Below, one piece after another: positions 101 to 5,091 of a DNA stretch of 5,091 nt. This DNA comes from Candidatus Nanopelagicaceae bacterium. GTDB lineage: Bacteria; Actinomycetota; Actinomycetes; Nanopelagicales; Nanopelagicaceae. Under the pieces are notes generated by a model. It ran no database searches, was not told the origin of the DNA, and worked only from the letters and a program-made list of their open reading frames with translations. A program made the position numbers and the translations under genes. Each line of letters opens with the position of its first letter. Position 1 is the first letter of the stretch. The stretch is taken from positions 1 to 5,091 of the forward strand of contig CANLFL010000069.1 in NCBI GenBank assembly GCA_947489825.1. The letters are read 5' to 3'.

Positions 101-718
101 ATGAAACGTGAAGAATTCTTTGCAAGCTGGAGCCAGCTTCATCTCGGCGCAGAGATCAAGGGAATCGTTAAAGGTTGGTTGAGTATCTCTTATGTCATCG
201 GTCGAGGATTAAATTCCTTAAAAATCACTCCAAATGTTCTAACTCTTCTAGGTGTACTCACTGCTTCGGCTGCACTCTTCTATCCTTATTCAGCAGTCGC
301 CCTGATTTTCCTCGTGTTATCCCTTATCTGTGATGGCGTTGATGGAAGCGTTGCCATTGTTTCAGGCAAGGTAAGCCAATTTGGTGCCGCTCTTGATGCT
401 ATCGCCGACCGCATCACAGAGGTGCTCTGGTTCTTTGCTCTCTATCAATGGGGAATTGCGCCAGAGATTTGTTTGGCGCTATTTGCTCTTGCACTCACAC
501 AAGAATATGCGCGAGCACGGATGGCATCTCTTGGTTTTCACGAGATTGGTGTGGTTACTATTGCAGAACGGCCAGTACGCGCCAGTGCGATTGCAATCTT
601 TATGGTGCTAGATCTGCTCAACTTTTCTTTCGCGCCAGTTGCGATTTATATCTTTACGGCGATGGCAATCTTTAGTGTCTATCAAGTGATGAGAGCTGCT
701 CGCCGCCATCTTCAGTAA
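101..718 (+). CDS. CDP-alcohol phosphatidyltransferase family membrane protein
   Basis: This 205-residue protein is of normal length for the family. These integral membrane enzymes move a phosphatidyl group from a CDP-linked lipid to an alcohol such as glycerol-phosphate, inositol-phosphate or serine. An ITPNVLTLLG segment (residues 42-51) opens the first strong membrane helix. The metal and CDP-binding motif follows as CDGVDG at 77-82, then G95, D99 and D103, so all four aspartates (78, 81, 99, 103) are present. The usual Ala-Arg step is Ala85-Ile86, so the typical Arg is missing. An ERPVR block (156-160) follows, and several hydrophobic helices reach the C-terminus. From memory, the DGxVAx...ERPxR pattern occurs in an actinobacterial subgroup of unassigned substrate. 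The ATG at 101 sits three bases after the metF stop with no clear Shine-Dalgarno, which suggests translational coupling. The acceptor alcohol cannot be deduced. Its 3' end overlaps the convergent desaturase gene. Confidence 0.9.
   Translation: MKREEFFASWSQLHLGAEIKGIVKGWLSISYVIGRGLNSLKITPNVLTLLGVLTASAALFYPYSAVALIFLVLSLICDGVDGSVAIVSGKVSQFGAALDAIADRITEVLWFFALYQWGIAPEICLALFALALTQEYARARMASLGFHEIGVVTIAERPVRASAIAIFMVLDLLNFSFAPVAIYIFTAMAIFSVYQVMRAARRHLQ
672..718. other. Tail-to-tail overlap of two convergent coding regions
   Basis: The plus-strand phosphatidyltransferase stops with TAA at 716-718 and the minus-strand desaturase stops with TAA at 672-674, so 47 bases encode both C-termini in opposite directions. 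There is no intergenic space for a terminator. Transcripts from each side must end inside the facing gene or be ended by factor-dependent termination. Confidence 0.9.
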
Positions 719-2201
719 TAATTGCTTGAGCAACTATCTCGGCACTTAAACCCACCAATGGGAGTCCTCCACCAGGGTGTGCACTTCCTCCCACGCAATA
801 CAAACCTTTGAGCGGACTGCGATTCTTCGCACGATTAAATGCACTCTGTGAGCCGTTACTTGATGTGCCATAGATAGAACCACCAGGCGCTAAGACGCTA
901 GCCTCTAAATCCGAAGGGGTGCGAATTTCCAAGAGTTCAAGGCGGTTGCGGATCTGAATACCGCGAGACTCGATGCGATCAATAATCTTCTGCGCATACT
1001 GGTCTGCAAACTCGCGATTGCTCCAATCGAAACTATCAGATCCGTGACGAGGTGCGTTCACTAAAACAAACCACGCCTCATGTCCCTCCCTTTTCACCAT
1101 CGTCTTATCGTGCGGAGCACAGATATAGATCGTCGGATCTTCGACTGGAGTCTTCTTGCTAAAGATAGATTCGAACTCTTCATCATAATTTTCTGGAAAT
1201 AAAACTGTGTGGTGTTCAAGCTTGGGCGCATCTGATGGTCGAAGCCCAAGGAGTAAAGAGAATCCAGCAAGGGATGGCTCCATCTTGGCTAGGGTGCGAG
1301 CTGCTTTGCGCACCGATTGTGAAGGATTCTTTATGAGCTGTGAATAAATCATTCCCGCATCTGCATTTGCGACAACTGTTGTGGCAGAGACTGTGCGGCC
1401 ATCTGCCATGGCTACACCCGTGACGGAACCTTCGCGATGAGTGATCTCAGCAACGCGAGCGCTAAATTCGAAGGTGACTCCTCTATCTAAACAACGTTGA
1501 TAGAGAGCATCGCCAAGCTTTCCAATACCGCCGGTGATATGCCAAGCACCAAAAGCTTCTTCGACAAAGGCGATTGACGATAAAACTGCAGGGGCAACAC
1601 GAGGATCAGATCCGCTATAGGTGGCATAGCGATCGAGAATTTTACGAAGGTGTGGACTCTTGATTGCCAGCCCGCGGATTGATTTCCATGGAGAGATAAC
1701 GAAAATATCTTTAATCAGCGATCTACGTTTGAGAAGAGAAGCCATAGATGTGAGCTCTGACTCGATAAATGGTTCACGCGAGACATCCCACATTGCTTCC
1801 GCCCGCTGCATCACCCGATCCCACTCGTTGGCGGCATCTGCGCCATATGAATCTGAGATTGCTTCTAAAGTTTTCTTGCGAGAGAGATTGGCATATTTCA
1901 CTGAGGTTCCATCGTGGAAGCGATAATCGAAAGATGGATCGACGGCTTTGAGTTCAACAACTCTGCCTAATACATCACCTGTTCGTTGAAAGAGATCGCG
2001 ATAGACAGCAGGCAGTGTCAGAAGTGAAGGACCTGTATCAAATGCGTAACCATCAATCCATTCAGTTCGACATTTTCCACCGTGGCGATCGCCGGCTTCA
2101 AAAACTTGAATACGATAACCCTTCTTGGCAAGGCGAGCAGCAGTTGCCATTCCACCCATGCCTGCGCCAATAACAACTACATCTTTCTTATCAGTTGTCA
2201 T
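672..2201 (-). CDS. CrtI/CrtD-family FAD-dependent carotenoid desaturase
   Basis: This 509-residue flavoprotein has a length typical of CrtI-type desaturases. The N-terminal Rossmann motif is VVVIGAGMGG (G12, G14, G17), with Glu35 ending the second strand to hold the FAD ribose. It is followed by HGGKCRT (40-46) and FDTGPSLLTLP (54-64). A central RYATYSGSDPR block starts near residue 191. The C-terminal FAD and substrate signature GGSAHPGGGLPLVGLS lies at about 471-486. The family acts at the membrane on phytoene-derived polyenes. Standing downstream of cruF and a glycosyltransferase gene, this copy more likely desaturates C-3',4' of a hydroxylated carotenoid (CrtD-type) than phytoene itself. 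A phytoene desaturase or a CrtO-like oxygenase remains possible. I chose the ATG at 2201 because it overlaps the upstream stop as ATGA and has a well-placed Shine-Dalgarno. A GTG at 2219 would add six residues but lies next to that site. This is the last gene of the operon. Confidence 0.9.
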   Translation of the reverse strand: MTTDKKDVVVIGAGMGGMATAARLAKKGYRIQVFEAGDRHGGKCRTEWIDGYAFDTGPSLLTLPAVYRDLFQRTGDVLGRVVELKAVDPSFDYRFHDGTSVKYANLSRKKTLEAISDSYGADAANEWDRVMQRAEAMWDVSREPFIESELTSMASLLKRRSLIKDIFVISPWKSIRGLAIKSPHLRKILDRYATYSGSDPRVAPAVLSSIAFVEEAFGAWHITGGIGKLGDALYQRCLDRGVTFEFSARVAEITHREGSVTGVAMADGRTVSATTVVANADAGMIYSQLIKNPSQSVRKAARTLAKMEPSLAGFSLLLGLRPSDAPKLEHHTVLFPENYDEEFESIFSKKTPVEDPTIYICAPHDKTMVKREGHEAWFVLVNAPRHGSDSFDWSNREFADQYAQKIIDRIESRGIQIRNRLELLEIRTPSDLEASVLAPGGSIYGTSSNGSQSAFNRAKNRSPLKGLYCVGGSAHPGGGLPLVGLSAEIVAQAIITEDGGEQLSSLDRH

Positions 2202-3277
2202 ACTGATCGCCCTTTCCACGTAATCTTAGAGTGGAAGAGATTGGAGTAGATCAACAGGTAGATAAAGAAAAGCGCGGAGATGGGGTGGAGAAGGCCATCA
2301 ATAAGCAGTGAACGCGATGACAAAGCTGAGACCACTCGTGAGGTGATAACAAGAAGTAGCGCAGCGGTAGCAATCGATGATCCTACGATTGAATAAATGA
2401 AAGGTAGTACAGCAGAAACTGCCATAACTAGAGTAAGTGCAAGTGAGCCAAAGATTCCGCCAAAGCCTGAAGACATTGACTTCCCATACCCTGCGCGAAT
2501 TTCTTCAAGAGATGTATACATGCGAGTAGATGCGATAGTCGATCCATCACAGACCCCACCTTTGTATCCGCTACGAACCAGAACACGTGCTATATCAATA
2601 TCATCAAGAACGCTCGATTGAATCGCGTTAAATCCTCCCGCTGCAACAAGTGCGCTCTTTTTAATGAAGAGAAACTGCCCATTAGCAACAGCGAGCGATG
2701 GACGTGCACTTCTCATTGCAAGTCGAAGTGGAACTGTAGTCATCCATGTCCACTGTAAGAGAGGTTGGATAATTCTTTCTGTCAGAGTTTCCGCTATTTG
2801 AGCAGGGTAGGGAGAGAGAAAATCCGATCCTGTTCGTTGTAGAACAGAATCCATCGCCGAGAGTGCATCGGGTGCGAGCCGAACATCAGCATCAACGGTC
2901 ACAATGTATTCATGAGTTGCATGGCTAAGCCCTTGCGATAACGCCCATGGCTTTCCCATCCAACTATCTGGCAAGGGGGCTGCACTAATTACCTTCATGA
3001 AGGGGCAATTTCTAATTGCCTGGCTTAAGAGATCCCCAGTGCTATCCGTTGAGTTGTCGTCAATAAAGATGACTTCATAGCGTGGGTGATCAAGTGTGCT
3101 AAGAGTTGAGACAAGCCCTGAGACATTTTCAGCCTCGTTACGACATGGAACAAGTATCGAAAAACTTAAATTATGCGAGCTTTGCCCTCGAGGTCGAATG
3201 ATTGTGATCGCGTTGAAGATAGCCATACTTAAGAGAAATGCATTGAGCGCAACGGAGAAGCTGAGAAGAGCTGACAT
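2198..3277 (-). CDS. Family 2 glycosyltransferase, probably carotenoid-specific (CruG/CrtQ-like)
   Basis: This 359-residue membrane-anchored GT-A glycosyltransferase starts with a hydrophobic N-terminal helix (about 2-27). The catalytic domain shows VPCRNE (43-48), FIDDNSTD (71-78), WMGKPWAL (106-113), the metal-binding D129-A-D131, the acceptor-side ANGQFLFIKKSAL block (198-210) and LDDID (224-228), whose Asp is the likely catalytic base. About three C-terminal hydrophobic helices (near 275-345) follow. The W-x-GKxWA motif and this topology recur in the carotenoid glycosyltransferases CrtQ and CruG, and also in hopanoid-associated HpnB. Lying between cruF and a carotenoid desaturase gene, it most likely moves a sugar from a nucleotide donor to a hydroxyl on the carotenoid psi end. 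Sugar and position (1' or 2') are unknown. The ATG follows the cruF stop by five bases with no clear Shine-Dalgarno, and the TGA overlaps the desaturase start. The GT2 fold is certain. The carotenoid role is inferred from context. Confidence 0.9.
   Translation of the reverse strand: MSALLSFSVALNAFLLSMAIFNAITIIRPRGQSSHNLSFSILVPCRNEAENVSGLVSTLSTLDHPRYEVIFIDDNSTDSTGDLLSQAIRNCPFMKVISAAPLPDSWMGKPWALSQGLSHATHEYIVTVDADVRLAPDALSAMDSVLQRTGSDFLSPYPAQIAETLTERIIQPLLQWTWMTTVPLRLAMRSARPSLAVANGQFLFIKKSALVAAGGFNAIQSSVLDDIDIARVLVRSGYKGGVCDGSTIASTRMYTSLEEIRAGYGKSMSSGFGGIFGSLALTLVMAVSAVLPFIYSIVGSSIATAALLLVITSRVVSALSSRSLLIDGLLHPISALFFIYLLIYSNLFHSKITWKGRSV
2210..2217 (-). promoter_or_regulatory. Ribosome binding site deciding the ATG start of the desaturase
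   Basis: On the minus strand GGAAAGGG lies eight bases before the ATG at 2201, inside the end of the glycosyltransferase gene. Its position favours that ATG over the in-frame GTG at 2219, which lies immediately beside it and so could not use it. The ATG also makes a 4-base ATGA overlap with the upstream stop, a common sign of translational coupling. Confidence 0.65.
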
Positions 3278-3282
3278 ATCAA

Positions 3283-4086
3283 TTAGCTGCGGTTAAGCCA
3301 CTGTGTGAAGAAGTACGGAGCTAGGATGAGGCCGTAGATCAAAAAAGCGACGATCGCCAGCCCGTGGCGCCCAAAGAAGAAGAACTGTGCAATAAATCCA
3401 CCAACCAAGCTCCACCCTAAGAAGATATCTACGACCAGCGTGCTTGGCGCTTCCTTACGTCGCTCTGTAGGAAGAATAAAGTGCAAGATTGCGATCAGTG
3501 TGAGGCCAGAAAGTAACCACCCAAATGCATTCGACAAAGGAATTTCTGGAGCGAATGGAAATGAACGCCCCGTAACTTCCCACGTCCATCTTCCTGCGGT
3601 AACCATCTGTGGATCTAAGAAGAGATCCCAACCCATCAAGATTGCTCCGCCATAGAGAAATACCCAGCCGCGTGTAATGCGACGAGCCGCGACAAGTGCA
3701 GGGTAGGCCATCATCGTCCACGCAAAGAGAACCACAAGTGGAACATCGAAGATAAACAAGCCAAGAGTTTTACTATATTCGTATACGCCAAAAGGCCAAC
3801 CAGTGTTTACTCCGACGTTTTCGATAATCAGTGCAAAGACGGCAGTTATAGAGAGATAAGTGAAAGCAAATTTATTTCCAAAACTCATCCGTGCATGTAA
3901 GAGCATCGCAGTAGCGCCGGAATAGACAGTAAGCAGAGTAAAAATCTCAAGTGCTCGTCCATCTAAGAGCGGATACGGAATTTGAAGCAGGATAGCCGCA
4001 GCGAGGACTACGCCAAGAAAAATTTTTGAGCGCTGAGATTGCACGCGACGACGATTTGATCGCGGCGTGAAATCTCTGATCGACAT
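3283..4086 (-). CDS. cruF: Carotenoid 1',2'-hydratase, CruF family (DUF422)
   Basis: This 267-residue, multi-helix membrane protein is of usual CruF length. Characteristic motifs are the ENVGVNTGWPFGVYEY stretch (89-104), FDVPLVV (113-119) with Trp123, the acidic GWDLFLDPQM (152-161), the RWTWE tryptophans (166-170) and the IPLSNAFGW block (182-190). Six to seven hydrophobic helices cover most of the chain after a basic N-terminal tail (RSNRRR). Family members add water across the terminal 1',2' double bond of lycopene- or gamma-carotene-type psi ends, giving a tertiary 1'-hydroxyl. Examples are cyanobacterial myxol and haloarchaeal bacterioruberin synthesis. The acidic residues in helices fit an acid-catalysed hydration. 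Its neighbours, a crtA-like gene 17 bases upstream and a glycosyltransferase gene five bases downstream, support the assignment. An AGGG about 12 bases before the ATG is a poor Shine-Dalgarno, so translation may be coupled to crtA. The family is clear. The exact substrate is inferred. Confidence 0.93.
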   Translation of the reverse strand: MSIRDFTPRSNRRRVQSQRSKIFLGVVLAAAILLQIPYPLLDGRALEIFTLLTVYSGATAMLLHARMSFGNKFAFTYLSITAVFALIIENVGVNTGWPFGVYEYSKTLGLFIFDVPLVVLFAWTMMAYPALVAARRITRGWVFLYGGAILMGWDLFLDPQMVTAGRWTWEVTGRSFPFAPEIPLSNAFGWLLSGLTLIAILHFILPTERRKEAPSTLVVDIFLGWSLVGGFIAQFFFFGRHGLAIVAFLIYGLILAPYFFTQWLNRS

Positions 4087-4103
4087 GGGCTAAGTCTGCC
4101 CTA

Positions 4104-4772
4104 CTAGAGTTGACCGCGCACATGGCGCAATGCAAAGCGTGAAAATAGCTCTTCGGCATACCAGTTGTACTGCGCTGTAGCCTCAATCGCTCTCTGATGT
4201 GCCTGACCTTTATAAGCAAAGTCACGTAAGGCTTTTCCGTTCTCCCAGAGAGAGAAAGTTCCCTGCAACCCAATTGGCGCTTCACCTATTCCGATAGCTG
4301 CAATCAACCCGGGGGATTGGTGCAGATCCGCAGAGACCGGTGGCACCGCTTTCCAAAATCTAAAGTTCTGACTCCACTTAATTCGTGCACGAGTTATTGC
4401 AACAACTTGAGCATCTGCCGAAGGAGTAACGCTCCAATCAAATGGATTCTGCCCCGACCATAGCCCATGTACTGCGATTGGATCTAGGACCAAACGGACT
4501 TCAGTGAGTGCTCGCTTATTCCATGACCGCAGCACCGCCAGAGAATCGATTGATTCCAAGGCGCTTTCATCAATAGCCATAATTGCGCCCCAGCGAGAGA
4601 GATCGGCATCACTGGGTGTGAAATTTTCTCCGGTTCCAGTGCCCAGCATCTTGGCAAAGTTCACACCGTCAGATCTGCGCAAACGACCTCGATCACGCGC
4701 CATGGAAAAAAGTGCGAAGGGAAGATCGTTTTTCTTAATGGTCCAAAAGTATGCAACGACTACTTGAGACAC
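4104..4772 (-). CDS. crtA: CrtA-like carotenoid (spheroidene) monooxygenase
   Basis: This 222-residue protein is close to the usual CrtA length and has no obvious membrane helix or signal peptide. Family blocks appear in order: KMLGTGTGENFTP (41-53), GLWSGQNPF (103-111), AITRARIKW (125-133), FRFWKAVPPVSA (137-148), GIGEAPIGLQGTFSLW (161-176) and the C-terminal AIEATAQYNWYAEELFSRF (195-213). In purple bacteria CrtA uses O2 to oxidise C-2 of acyclic carotenoids twice, giving a 2-keto group, and is reported to be a heme enzyme. With cruF and a glycosyltransferase gene next to it, this version may stop at a 2'-hydroxyl or go on to the ketone. Sequence alone does not decide. The GTG start at 4772 is favoured by a GGAG seven bases upstream, and the preceding gene ends two bases before it. 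This start is unusual in being GTG but well supported. Confidence 0.88.
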   Translation of the reverse strand: MSQVVVAYFWTIKKNDLPFALFSMARDRGRLRRSDGVNFAKMLGTGTGENFTPSDADLSRWGAIMAIDESALESIDSLAVLRSWNKRALTEVRLVLDPIAVHGLWSGQNPFDWSVTPSADAQVVAITRARIKWSQNFRFWKAVPPVSADLHQSPGLIAAIGIGEAPIGLQGTFSLWENGKALRDFAYKGQAHQRAIEATAQYNWYAEELFSRFALRHVRGQL

Positions 4773-4774
4773 AA

Positions 4775-5091
4775 TTAATCTCCAACAATCATAGGCGTTG
4801 CTTTTGCGCAGGCTAGCAACTCTGCGTAACTAGTTGGATAGACCGCGTGTGGATGTCCAGCGGCTGCCCAGACTACGTCGTAGTCATTGAGGGCTTCATC
4901 GATCAGCGTGATTTCGGGTTCTGATATCCAGCCCAAAGGACTTACGCCCCCTATGGCTTTTGAAACCATTTCGACTGGGGAAATGTTGTATGAGGTTCGA
5001 ACTTGGTCTCTCATTAGAAATGCCTTCGCCGTTATTTCTGCTCTTTTGTGTCGGATTTCAAAATTCGATAAAAAGCAAATGTAATGATTAA
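4775..5091 (-). CDS. YbaK/EbsC-family aminoacyl-tRNA deacylase, 5' end beyond window
   Basis: The frame stays open from the stop at 4775-4777 to the right edge, giving 104 visible residues of a family usually about 155-165 long. Roughly 50-60 N-terminal residues are therefore missing. The ATG at 5014 is internal, because residues read upstream of it still fit the fold: a hydrophobic strand YICFLS, then a basic helix with the conserved Lys region. Diagnostic features are KAIGGVSPLG, matching the family GGvxPxG loop, then TLIDEAL, and DYDVVWAAAGHPHAVY near the C-terminus. These cytosolic enzymes hydrolyse mischarged aminoacyl-tRNAs such as Ala- or Cys-tRNA(Pro). Which substrate this one edits cannot be told. 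It ends two bases before the crtA-like start, and its last codons contain that gene's Shine-Dalgarno. It therefore probably shares the carotenoid transcript, although no functional link is apparent. Confidence 0.88.
   Translation of the reverse strand, partial: NHYICFLSNFEIRHKRAEITAKAFLMRDQVRTSYNISPVEMVSKAIGGVSPLGWISEPEITLIDEALNDYDVVWAAAGHPHAVYPTSYAELLACAKATPMIVGD
4779..4784 (-). promoter_or_regulatory. Ribosome binding site for the crtA-like gene
   Basis: On the minus strand TGGAGA contains the Shine-Dalgarno core GGAG seven bases before the GTG at 4772. It overlaps the last codons (Val-Gly-Asp) of the upstream deacylase gene. This is the clearest Shine-Dalgarno in the window and fixes the GTG start, since no in-frame ATG lies at a comparable position. 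Confidence 0.75.

What the first reader, a model, noticed from the sequence alone, without database searches (positions are those of the whole stretch)
672..4772. Compact four-gene cassette predicted to build a glycosylated 1'-hydroxy carotenoid
Seen: crtA-like, cruF, GT2 and CrtI/CrtD-like genes are contiguous with gaps of at most 17 bases. Known: CruF hydrates C-1', CrtD-type enzymes desaturate C-3',4', CrtA oxidises C-2, and CruG/CrtQ-type enzymes glycosylate. Inferred: together they give a 1'-hydroxy, 2'-oxygenated, 3',4'-didehydro psi end carrying a sugar, a pattern like myxoxanthophyll or salinixanthin. The mixed set, a CrtA family best known from purple bacteria with a CruF/CruG-like pair best known from cyanobacteria, is an unusual combination in an apparent actinobacterium.
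Basis: partly seen in the sequence, partly recalled or inferred. Interest (0 to 1): 0.75.

Follow-up and report, generated by a model that had tools for sequence, protein, structure and literature searches.

The report
Actinobacterial glycosylated carotenoid gene cassette
Four neighbouring genes from a freshwater actinobacterium very probably finish one end of a sugar-bearing carotenoid pigment; the set is real, but it is ordinary for this group of bacteria and recurs in other actinobacteria.

Summary
Minus-strand crtA-like (4104-4772), cruF (3283-4086), GT2 (2198-3277) and crtD-like (672-2201) genes have gaps of 17 and 5 bases and an ATGA overlap. The closest relatives are Ca. Nanopelagicaceae and Ca. 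Planktophila, the acI group. The predicted 1'-hydroxy, 2'-oxygenated, 3',4'-didehydro, glycosylated psi end is supported by homology: CruF + CrtD + CrtA-OH of Nonlabens made the myxol end group in E. coli (PMC11855829). The claim of an unusual combination is not supported. In the order, 94 of 101 genomes have crtA and 99 of 101 cruF, adjacent in 93 of the 94 with both. Elsewhere in the phylum, 23 of 26 genomes with a CrtA hit hold all four genes within 8.7 kb, 15 of them with a CrtO-like gene between crtA and cruF. The best-fitting known product is phleixanthophyll, already reported from an actinobacterium. A complex-carotenoid branch in acI is, by recall, published. New member of a known kind. 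Oxidation state at C-2', the sugar and its position are inferred.

The parts
4104..4772 (-). crtA-like gene (spheroidene monooxygenase / CrtA-OH family), predicted C-2' oxygenase
   Evidence: NF045923 158 bits, E 2.1e-46 (cut-off 300 not reached); keeps all 26 columns conserved in at least 95% of 30 aligned sequences (one row, L084, left out of that count)
3283..4086 (-). cruF, predicted carotenoid 1',2'-hydratase
   Evidence: PF04240 104 bits, cut-off 25; best TIGR03460 bisanhydrobacterioruberin hydratase CruF 99.8 bits (cut-off 154.7 not reached)
2198..3277 (-). GT2 glycosyltransferase, CruG/CrtQ-like, predicted carotenoid glycosyltransferase
   Evidence: PF00535 3.7e-21; NF045692 CruG 145 bits (cut-off 600 not reached), HpnB 117; relatives in carotenoid loci
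672..2201 (-). crtD-like 1'-hydroxycarotenoid 3',4'-desaturase (the ORF can extend to a GTG at 2219)
   Evidence: ATG at 2201
2198..2201 (-). ATGA stop/start overlap of GT2 and crtD, suggesting translational coupling (inference)
4775..5089 (-). YbaK-like gene, 5' end beyond the window, 2 bases upstream of crtA; neighbour, not part of the pathway
   Evidence: (PF04073 E 1e-4, below cut-off)
101..718 (+). CDP-alcohol phosphatidyltransferase, convergent, overlapping the end of crtD; neighbour, not part of the pathway

Best explanation
The cassette is the psi-end finishing operon of a C40 carotenoid glycoside in an acI-type freshwater actinobacterium. Inferred steps: a lycopene or gamma-carotene precursor comes from crtE-crtI-crtB (nearby in relatives) and a CrtYc/CrtYd-type cyclase (elsewhere in relatives' genomes); CruF adds water at C-1',2'; the CrtD-like enzyme desaturates C-3',4'; the CrtA-like enzyme oxygenates C-2', most likely as a hydroxylase like flavobacterial CrtA-OH; the GT2 adds a sugar. 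The predicted product is phleixanthophyll-like (1'-glycosyloxy-2'-hydroxy-3',4'-didehydro-1',2'-dihydro-beta,psi-carotene; structure recalled) without a 4-keto group, since no CrtO gene lies in the cassette. Shown here: gene identity at family level, linkage, conservation. Inferred: every reaction, the order of steps, the sugar and its position.
For: Family matches. CrtD rather than CrtI. In L002 the cassette is followed by CDP-OH-P and metF on the other strand and by crtE-crtI-crtB starting about 1.5 kb beyond crtD; the CrtI gene is at that place in 7 of 11 loci, the other 4 contigs ending before it. Cyclase domain pair in 8 of 10 relatives' genomes, blh in 8 of 10, rhodopsin in 7 of 10. Order: crtA 94 of 101, cruF 99 of 101, adjacent in 93 of 94. 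In E. coli, Nonlabens crtY + cruF + crtD + crtA-OH gives deoxymyxol (PMC11855829, first part of section 3). GT2 relatives beside carotenoid genes in 7 of 8 annotated places opened. Phleixanthophyll reported from Nocardia kirovani (passage of PMC5822342).
Against: No protein reaches the cut-off of its specific equivalog model. [quoted passage not shown] The GT2's best model is a 2'-O-glycosyltransferase, whereas phleixanthophyll carries its sugar at 1' (recalled). HpnB is the next model for the GT2. No cyclase lies in the operon, so an acyclic substrate is possible. The window's own genome is not held, so its cyclase and crtE-crtI-crtB are inferred from relatives.
Confidence: 0.72

Rival explanations
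1. Same pathway, but the CrtA-like enzyme is a ketolase, giving a 2'-keto end with the sugar on the 1' oxygen.
For: Its one profile match is the Rhodobacter-type spheroidene monooxygenase; CrtA of Rubrivivax acts as a ketolase although acquired from Bacteroidetes, where CrtA is a hydroxylase (PMC2889829 passage).
Against: Together with CruF and CrtD the tested relative is a hydroxylase (PMC11855829).
Confidence: 0.2
2. Acyclic product: the enzymes act on one or both ends of lycopene, giving an acyclic hydroxylated glycoside.
For: No cyclase in the cassette; CruF matches best the bisanhydrobacterioruberin hydratase model; Nonlabens CruF alone makes hydroxy- and dihydroxylycopene.
Against: A cyclase domain pair is in 8 of 10 relatives' genomes and blh in 8 of 10.
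Confidence: 0.15
3. The GT2 is not a carotenoid enzyme but an HpnB- or lipid-type glycosyltransferase, and the pigment is an aglycone (deoxymyxol-like).
For: HpnB is the second model, 117 bits; the GT2 is the most divergent of the four between loci, 43-69% identity; one of 8 annotated plasmid relatives opened has no carotenoid neighbours.
Against: CruG scores higher, 145 bits; a GT2 lies with crtA, cruF and crtD in 23 of 26 non-acI genomes; the other 7 plasmid relatives lie beside carotenoid genes.
Confidence: 0.12

Closest known systems
[quoted passage not shown]
   Same: Same three enzyme families on the psi end, tested in E. coli (PMC11855829)
   Different: Bacteroidota; no glycosyltransferase in the published set; crtY and crtZ in the cluster
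Phleixanthophyll of actinobacteria (Nocardia kirovani in a PMC5822342 passage; Mycobacterium phlei recalled)
   Same: Predicted structure matches; actinobacterial
   Different: I found no gene assignment for it, and no named producer genome was tested here
Salinixanthin (Salinibacter, Rhodothermus)
   Same: Monocyclic carotenoid glucoside with 1'-sugar and 2'-hydroxyl form
   Different: 4-keto ring and fatty-acylated sugar; the authors found no CruF, CrtC or CrtA homologue and no unequivocal CrtD in R. marinus (PMC5822342 passages); no CrtO gene in the window
Cyanobacterial CruF/CruG pathway
   Same: CruF hydratase and CruG-like GT2
   Different: The gamma-carotene CruF model NF045693 matches at only 40.9 bits and TIGR02733 CrtD at 87.5 of 549.7
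Retinal and complex-carotenoid pathway of acI Actinobacteria (Dwulit-Smith et al. 2018, not held; described in PMC8113403 passages)
   Same: Same organisms; retinal and carotenoid operons described and transcribed
   Different: I did not see that paper's gene list; its complex-carotenoid claim is recalled

Membership tests
CruF carotenoid 1',2'-hydratase | Caroten_synth domain over curated cut-off | tested here: met
   104 bits, cut-off 25
CruF carotenoid 1',2'-hydratase | Specific equivalog cut-off (TIGR03460, NF045693) | tested here: not met
   99.8 of 154.7 and 40.9 of 400 bits
CrtD 3',4'-desaturase | Closer to CrtD than to CrtI references | tested here: met
CrtD 3',4'-desaturase | Specific equivalog cut-off (NF045637) | tested here: not met
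   344 of 580 bits
CrtA family | Full-length match and the columns conserved in the family sample | tested here: met
   (residues 2-220 of 222)
CrtA family | Specific equivalog cut-off (NF045923, Rhodobacter type) | tested here: not met
   158 of 300 bits; 0 of 101 genomes of the order reach it
CrtA-OH hydroxylase subgroup | Grouping with tested Bacteroidota hydroxylases | not tested
   No named Bacteroidota CrtA sequence was obtained (one search lists the best 120 of 5848)
CruG-type carotenoid glycosyltransferase | CruG model best among named GT2 models and over its cut-off | tested here: inconclusive
   best model but 145 of 600 bits
Salinixanthin-type pathway | 4-ketolase gene with the set | tested here: not met
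   None in the window; no room between crtA and cruF in the 93 genomes of the order with both on one contig, largest distance between profile edges 247 nt
Phleixanthophyll pathway | Chemical identity of the product | not testable with these tools
   Needs LC-MS/NMR

The most novel reading that the evidence does not exclude
crtA-(crtO)-cruF-GT2-crtD is the unassigned biosynthetic locus of the actinobacterial phleixanthophylls. Presence or absence of the crtO-like gene in the cassette decides the 4-keto form, and acI bacteria kept the non-keto form, possibly as a second chromophore for actinorhodopsin.
Probability: 0.35. Interest if true: 0.5.

Novelty: new member of a known kind. Interest (0 to 1): 0.32.

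Why it matters
acI bacteria are among the most abundant freshwater microbes (stated in PMC8113403), and 7 of 10 relatives' genomes here hold a rhodopsin. That nearly all sampled genomes of the order keep crtA beside cruF makes a concrete pigment structure testable, and the crtO-like gene in other actinobacteria gives a simple genetic prediction for keto and non-keto forms.

Tried and rejected
Viral origin: a viral-contig scan with CrtA gave no relative. A classical CrtY-type cyclase (PF05834): only sub-cut-off N-terminal hits, in 7 of 10 genomes, while the model rings in 10 of 14 controls; the CrtYc/CrtYd type is taken as the cyclase.

CrtO-family genes in the order: 14 of 101 genomes at E <= 1e-30, none over cut-off, and in all 14 on contigs other than the crtA contig. 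They are not counted in the cassette, but they mean that a 4-keto step cannot be excluded in those genomes.

Contrary or empty results: the Deinococcus taeanensis plasmid CrtA has no annotated carotenoid neighbours in the fetched stretch. The Picosynechococcus GT2 relative has none either, the one contrary case of 8 annotated places. Of the 26 phylum genomes with a CrtA hit, 3 lack the rest of the set in the fetched stretch (L082, a strong hit of 4.5e-39; L086 and L087, weak hits of 5.2e-11 and 6.0e-8). In L084 the crtA and GT2 matches are broken into pieces, and in L068 and L077 crtA and GT2 lie on the other strand from cruF and crtD. No PDB relative of CrtA at E <= 1. One search lists the best 120 of 5848 CrtA homologues, almost all unnamed, so the CrtA tree lacks the tested hydroxylases and cannot settle hydroxyl or keto. 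In that tree the one Rhodobacterales row is a long branch of unsure place, as is Sulfitobacter CrtD; the CrtA tree holds 31 rows, and L085, L086 and L087 were left out by a bit-score floor or for want of a match. Papers on acI or actinobacterial carotenoids with these genes: listings gave none naming this cassette in acI; this is no proof of absence. A Luna-1 actinobacteria paper describes other genes (crtB, crtY, crtEb) in that group (PMC12422013 passages).

Full report
Observation. The window encodes four co-directional minus-strand genes, crtA-like (4104-4772), cruF (3283-4086), GT2 (2198-3277) and crtD-like (672-2201, or from a GTG at 2219), with gaps of 17 and 5 bases and an ATGA overlap. 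A YbaK-like gene lies 2 bases upstream of crtA, and a convergent CDP-alcohol phosphatidyltransferase gene overlaps the end of crtD.

Source. A scan with CrtA of contigs of one genome per species gave 11 loci; the closest are Ca. Nanopelagicaceae (88%) and Ca. Planktophila (77%). That these are the acI group is recalled. No genome is held for the window itself. In the protein database the best 120 of 5848 homologues are almost all unnamed, but one source already names a Ca. Planktophila relative 'spheroidene monooxygenase, partial'.

Context in relatives. All four genes are in the same order in 9 of the 11 loci (in L008 crtD is cut by the contig end); L001 and L011 end inside cruF. In L002 the cassette is followed by CDP-OH-P and metF on the other strand, then crtE-crtI-crtB, crtE starting about 1.5 kb beyond crtD. 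The CrtI gene is at that place in 7 of 11 loci; the other 4 contigs end before it. In the 10 genomes holding these loci the lycopene-cyclase domain pair (CrtYc/CrtYd type) is in 8, blh in 8 (one only a fragment at a contig end) and rhodopsin in 7.

Conservation. In a draw of 101 genomes from the order of LanE43 (which also holds the Ca. Planktophila genome G001), 94 have a CrtA hit and 99 a CruF hit; in the 14 control genomes CrtA rings in 0 and CruF in 3. In 93 of the 94 with both, crtA lies directly 5' of cruF on the same strand; in the other one the two hits are on different contigs.

CrtD, not CrtI. The window protein scores 246 bits against PDB 4REP (gamma-carotene desaturase; from Nonlabens by recall) and 159 against 4DGK (phytoene dehydrogenase). 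The CrtI of the L002 locus scores 235 against 4DGK and 212 against 4REP. In a 62-row tree the window protein nests among actinobacterial CrtD rows with Sulfitobacter CrtD next to them, apart from Sulfitobacter CrtI and acI CrtI. The Sulfitobacter CrtD branch is long and its exact place unsure.

GT2. I opened 9 of the 25 listed plasmid places (177 records matched in all). One record (Niallia) has no annotation in the stretch, though a CruF match lies about 0.9 kb from its GT2 match. Of the other 8, 7 have carotenoid genes beside the GT2 and 1 (Picosynechococcus) has none annotated.

Not unusual among actinobacteria. In a draw of 396 genomes of the phylum, 27 have a CrtA hit, one being LanE43 itself. 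I fetched up to 8 kb on each side for the other 26: 23 hold all four genes, within spans of 4.1 to 8.7 kb. Gene orders: 15 have crtA, a CrtI-superfamily gene, cruF, GT2, crtD in that order; 3 have crtA-cruF-GT2-crtD, 2 of these with the YbaK, CDP-OH-P, metF and crtE neighbours of acI; 5 are rearranged. The 15 inserted genes form one clade (100/100); 4 of the 15 were scanned and match CrtO best, at 208-235 bits, far below the 1000-bit cut-off. Nonomuraea gerenzanensis also has cruF-crtD-GT2-crtA beside crtB, crtI and crtE. In a 31-row CrtA tree the window groups with the acI rows (97/99) inside an actinobacterial set of 24 (89/98), apart from Sulfitobacter, Deinococcus and Nonomuraea rows.

Literature. 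In E. coli, Nonlabens crtY + cruF gave 1'-hydroxy-gamma-carotene, adding crtD 1'-hydroxytorulene, adding crtA-OH deoxymyxol (PMC11855829, first part of section 3 read). Bacteroidetes CrtA acts as a hydroxylase and was transferred to Rubrivivax, where it acts as a ketolase (PMC2889829, passages). Phleixanthophyll is named as the hydroxylated form reported in Nocardia kirovani (PMC5822342, passages). The acI pathway paper (Dwulit-Smith 2018) is not held; PMC8113403 passages describe it and speak of complex carotenoids. That its abstract claims a complex-carotenoid branch in all acI clades is my recall. For gene assignments of phleixanthophyll, one search found one paper (PMC5822342), whose passage assigns none to the actinobacterial pigment; one search found one Salinibacter model paper; the 12 listed of 85 were not opened.

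On the rhodopsin idea. PMC8113403 reports, for another freshwater actinobacterium (IMCC13023), that its own carotenoid bound actinorhodopsin and raised the initial pumping rate, but that added salinixanthin lowered the rate and canthaxanthin gave no complex (passages). So a carotenoid partner is plausible, but a salinixanthin-like partner has direct evidence against it in that strain.

Conclusion. The cassette most likely makes a phleixanthophyll-like glycoside without a 4-keto group. Reactions, sugar and position are inferred. The finding is sound but conventional for the group.

Noticed in passing
L062-L067, L070-L074, L078-L080, L084: In 15 of 26 non-acI actinobacterial genomes with a CrtA hit, a CrtO-like gene (4 of 15 scanned) lies between crtA and cruF, predicting a 4-keto form of the pigment.
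   Followed up: partly
L009:9363-10013: In LanE43 an unscanned 216-aa ORF overlaps the start of crtA by a few bases, where the window has the YbaK-like gene; possibly a regulator.
   Followed up: no
L011:1919-2561: crtA of one Ca. Nanopelagicaceae MAG contig matches in two frames, and the same MAG has a second crtA-cruF contig (L001), suggesting strain mixture or an assembly error.
   Followed up: no
L006 and L010 record titles: MAG records titled Streptomyces griseus and Bifidobacterium breve carry the acI-type locus in genomes of about 1.5 and 1.3 Mb, so the titles look mislabelled.
   Followed up: no
L075, L076: Two genomes of 7.0 and 3.1 Mb share not only the cassette but also the YbaK, CDP-OH-P, metF and crtE neighbours with acI, so the wider locus may be older than the small-genome order.
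   Followed up: partly
L022 (NZ_LT559118.1): The 11.85-Mb Nonomuraea gerenzanensis record is filed as a plasmid and has almost no annotation in the collection; it looks like a chromosome.
   Followed up: no
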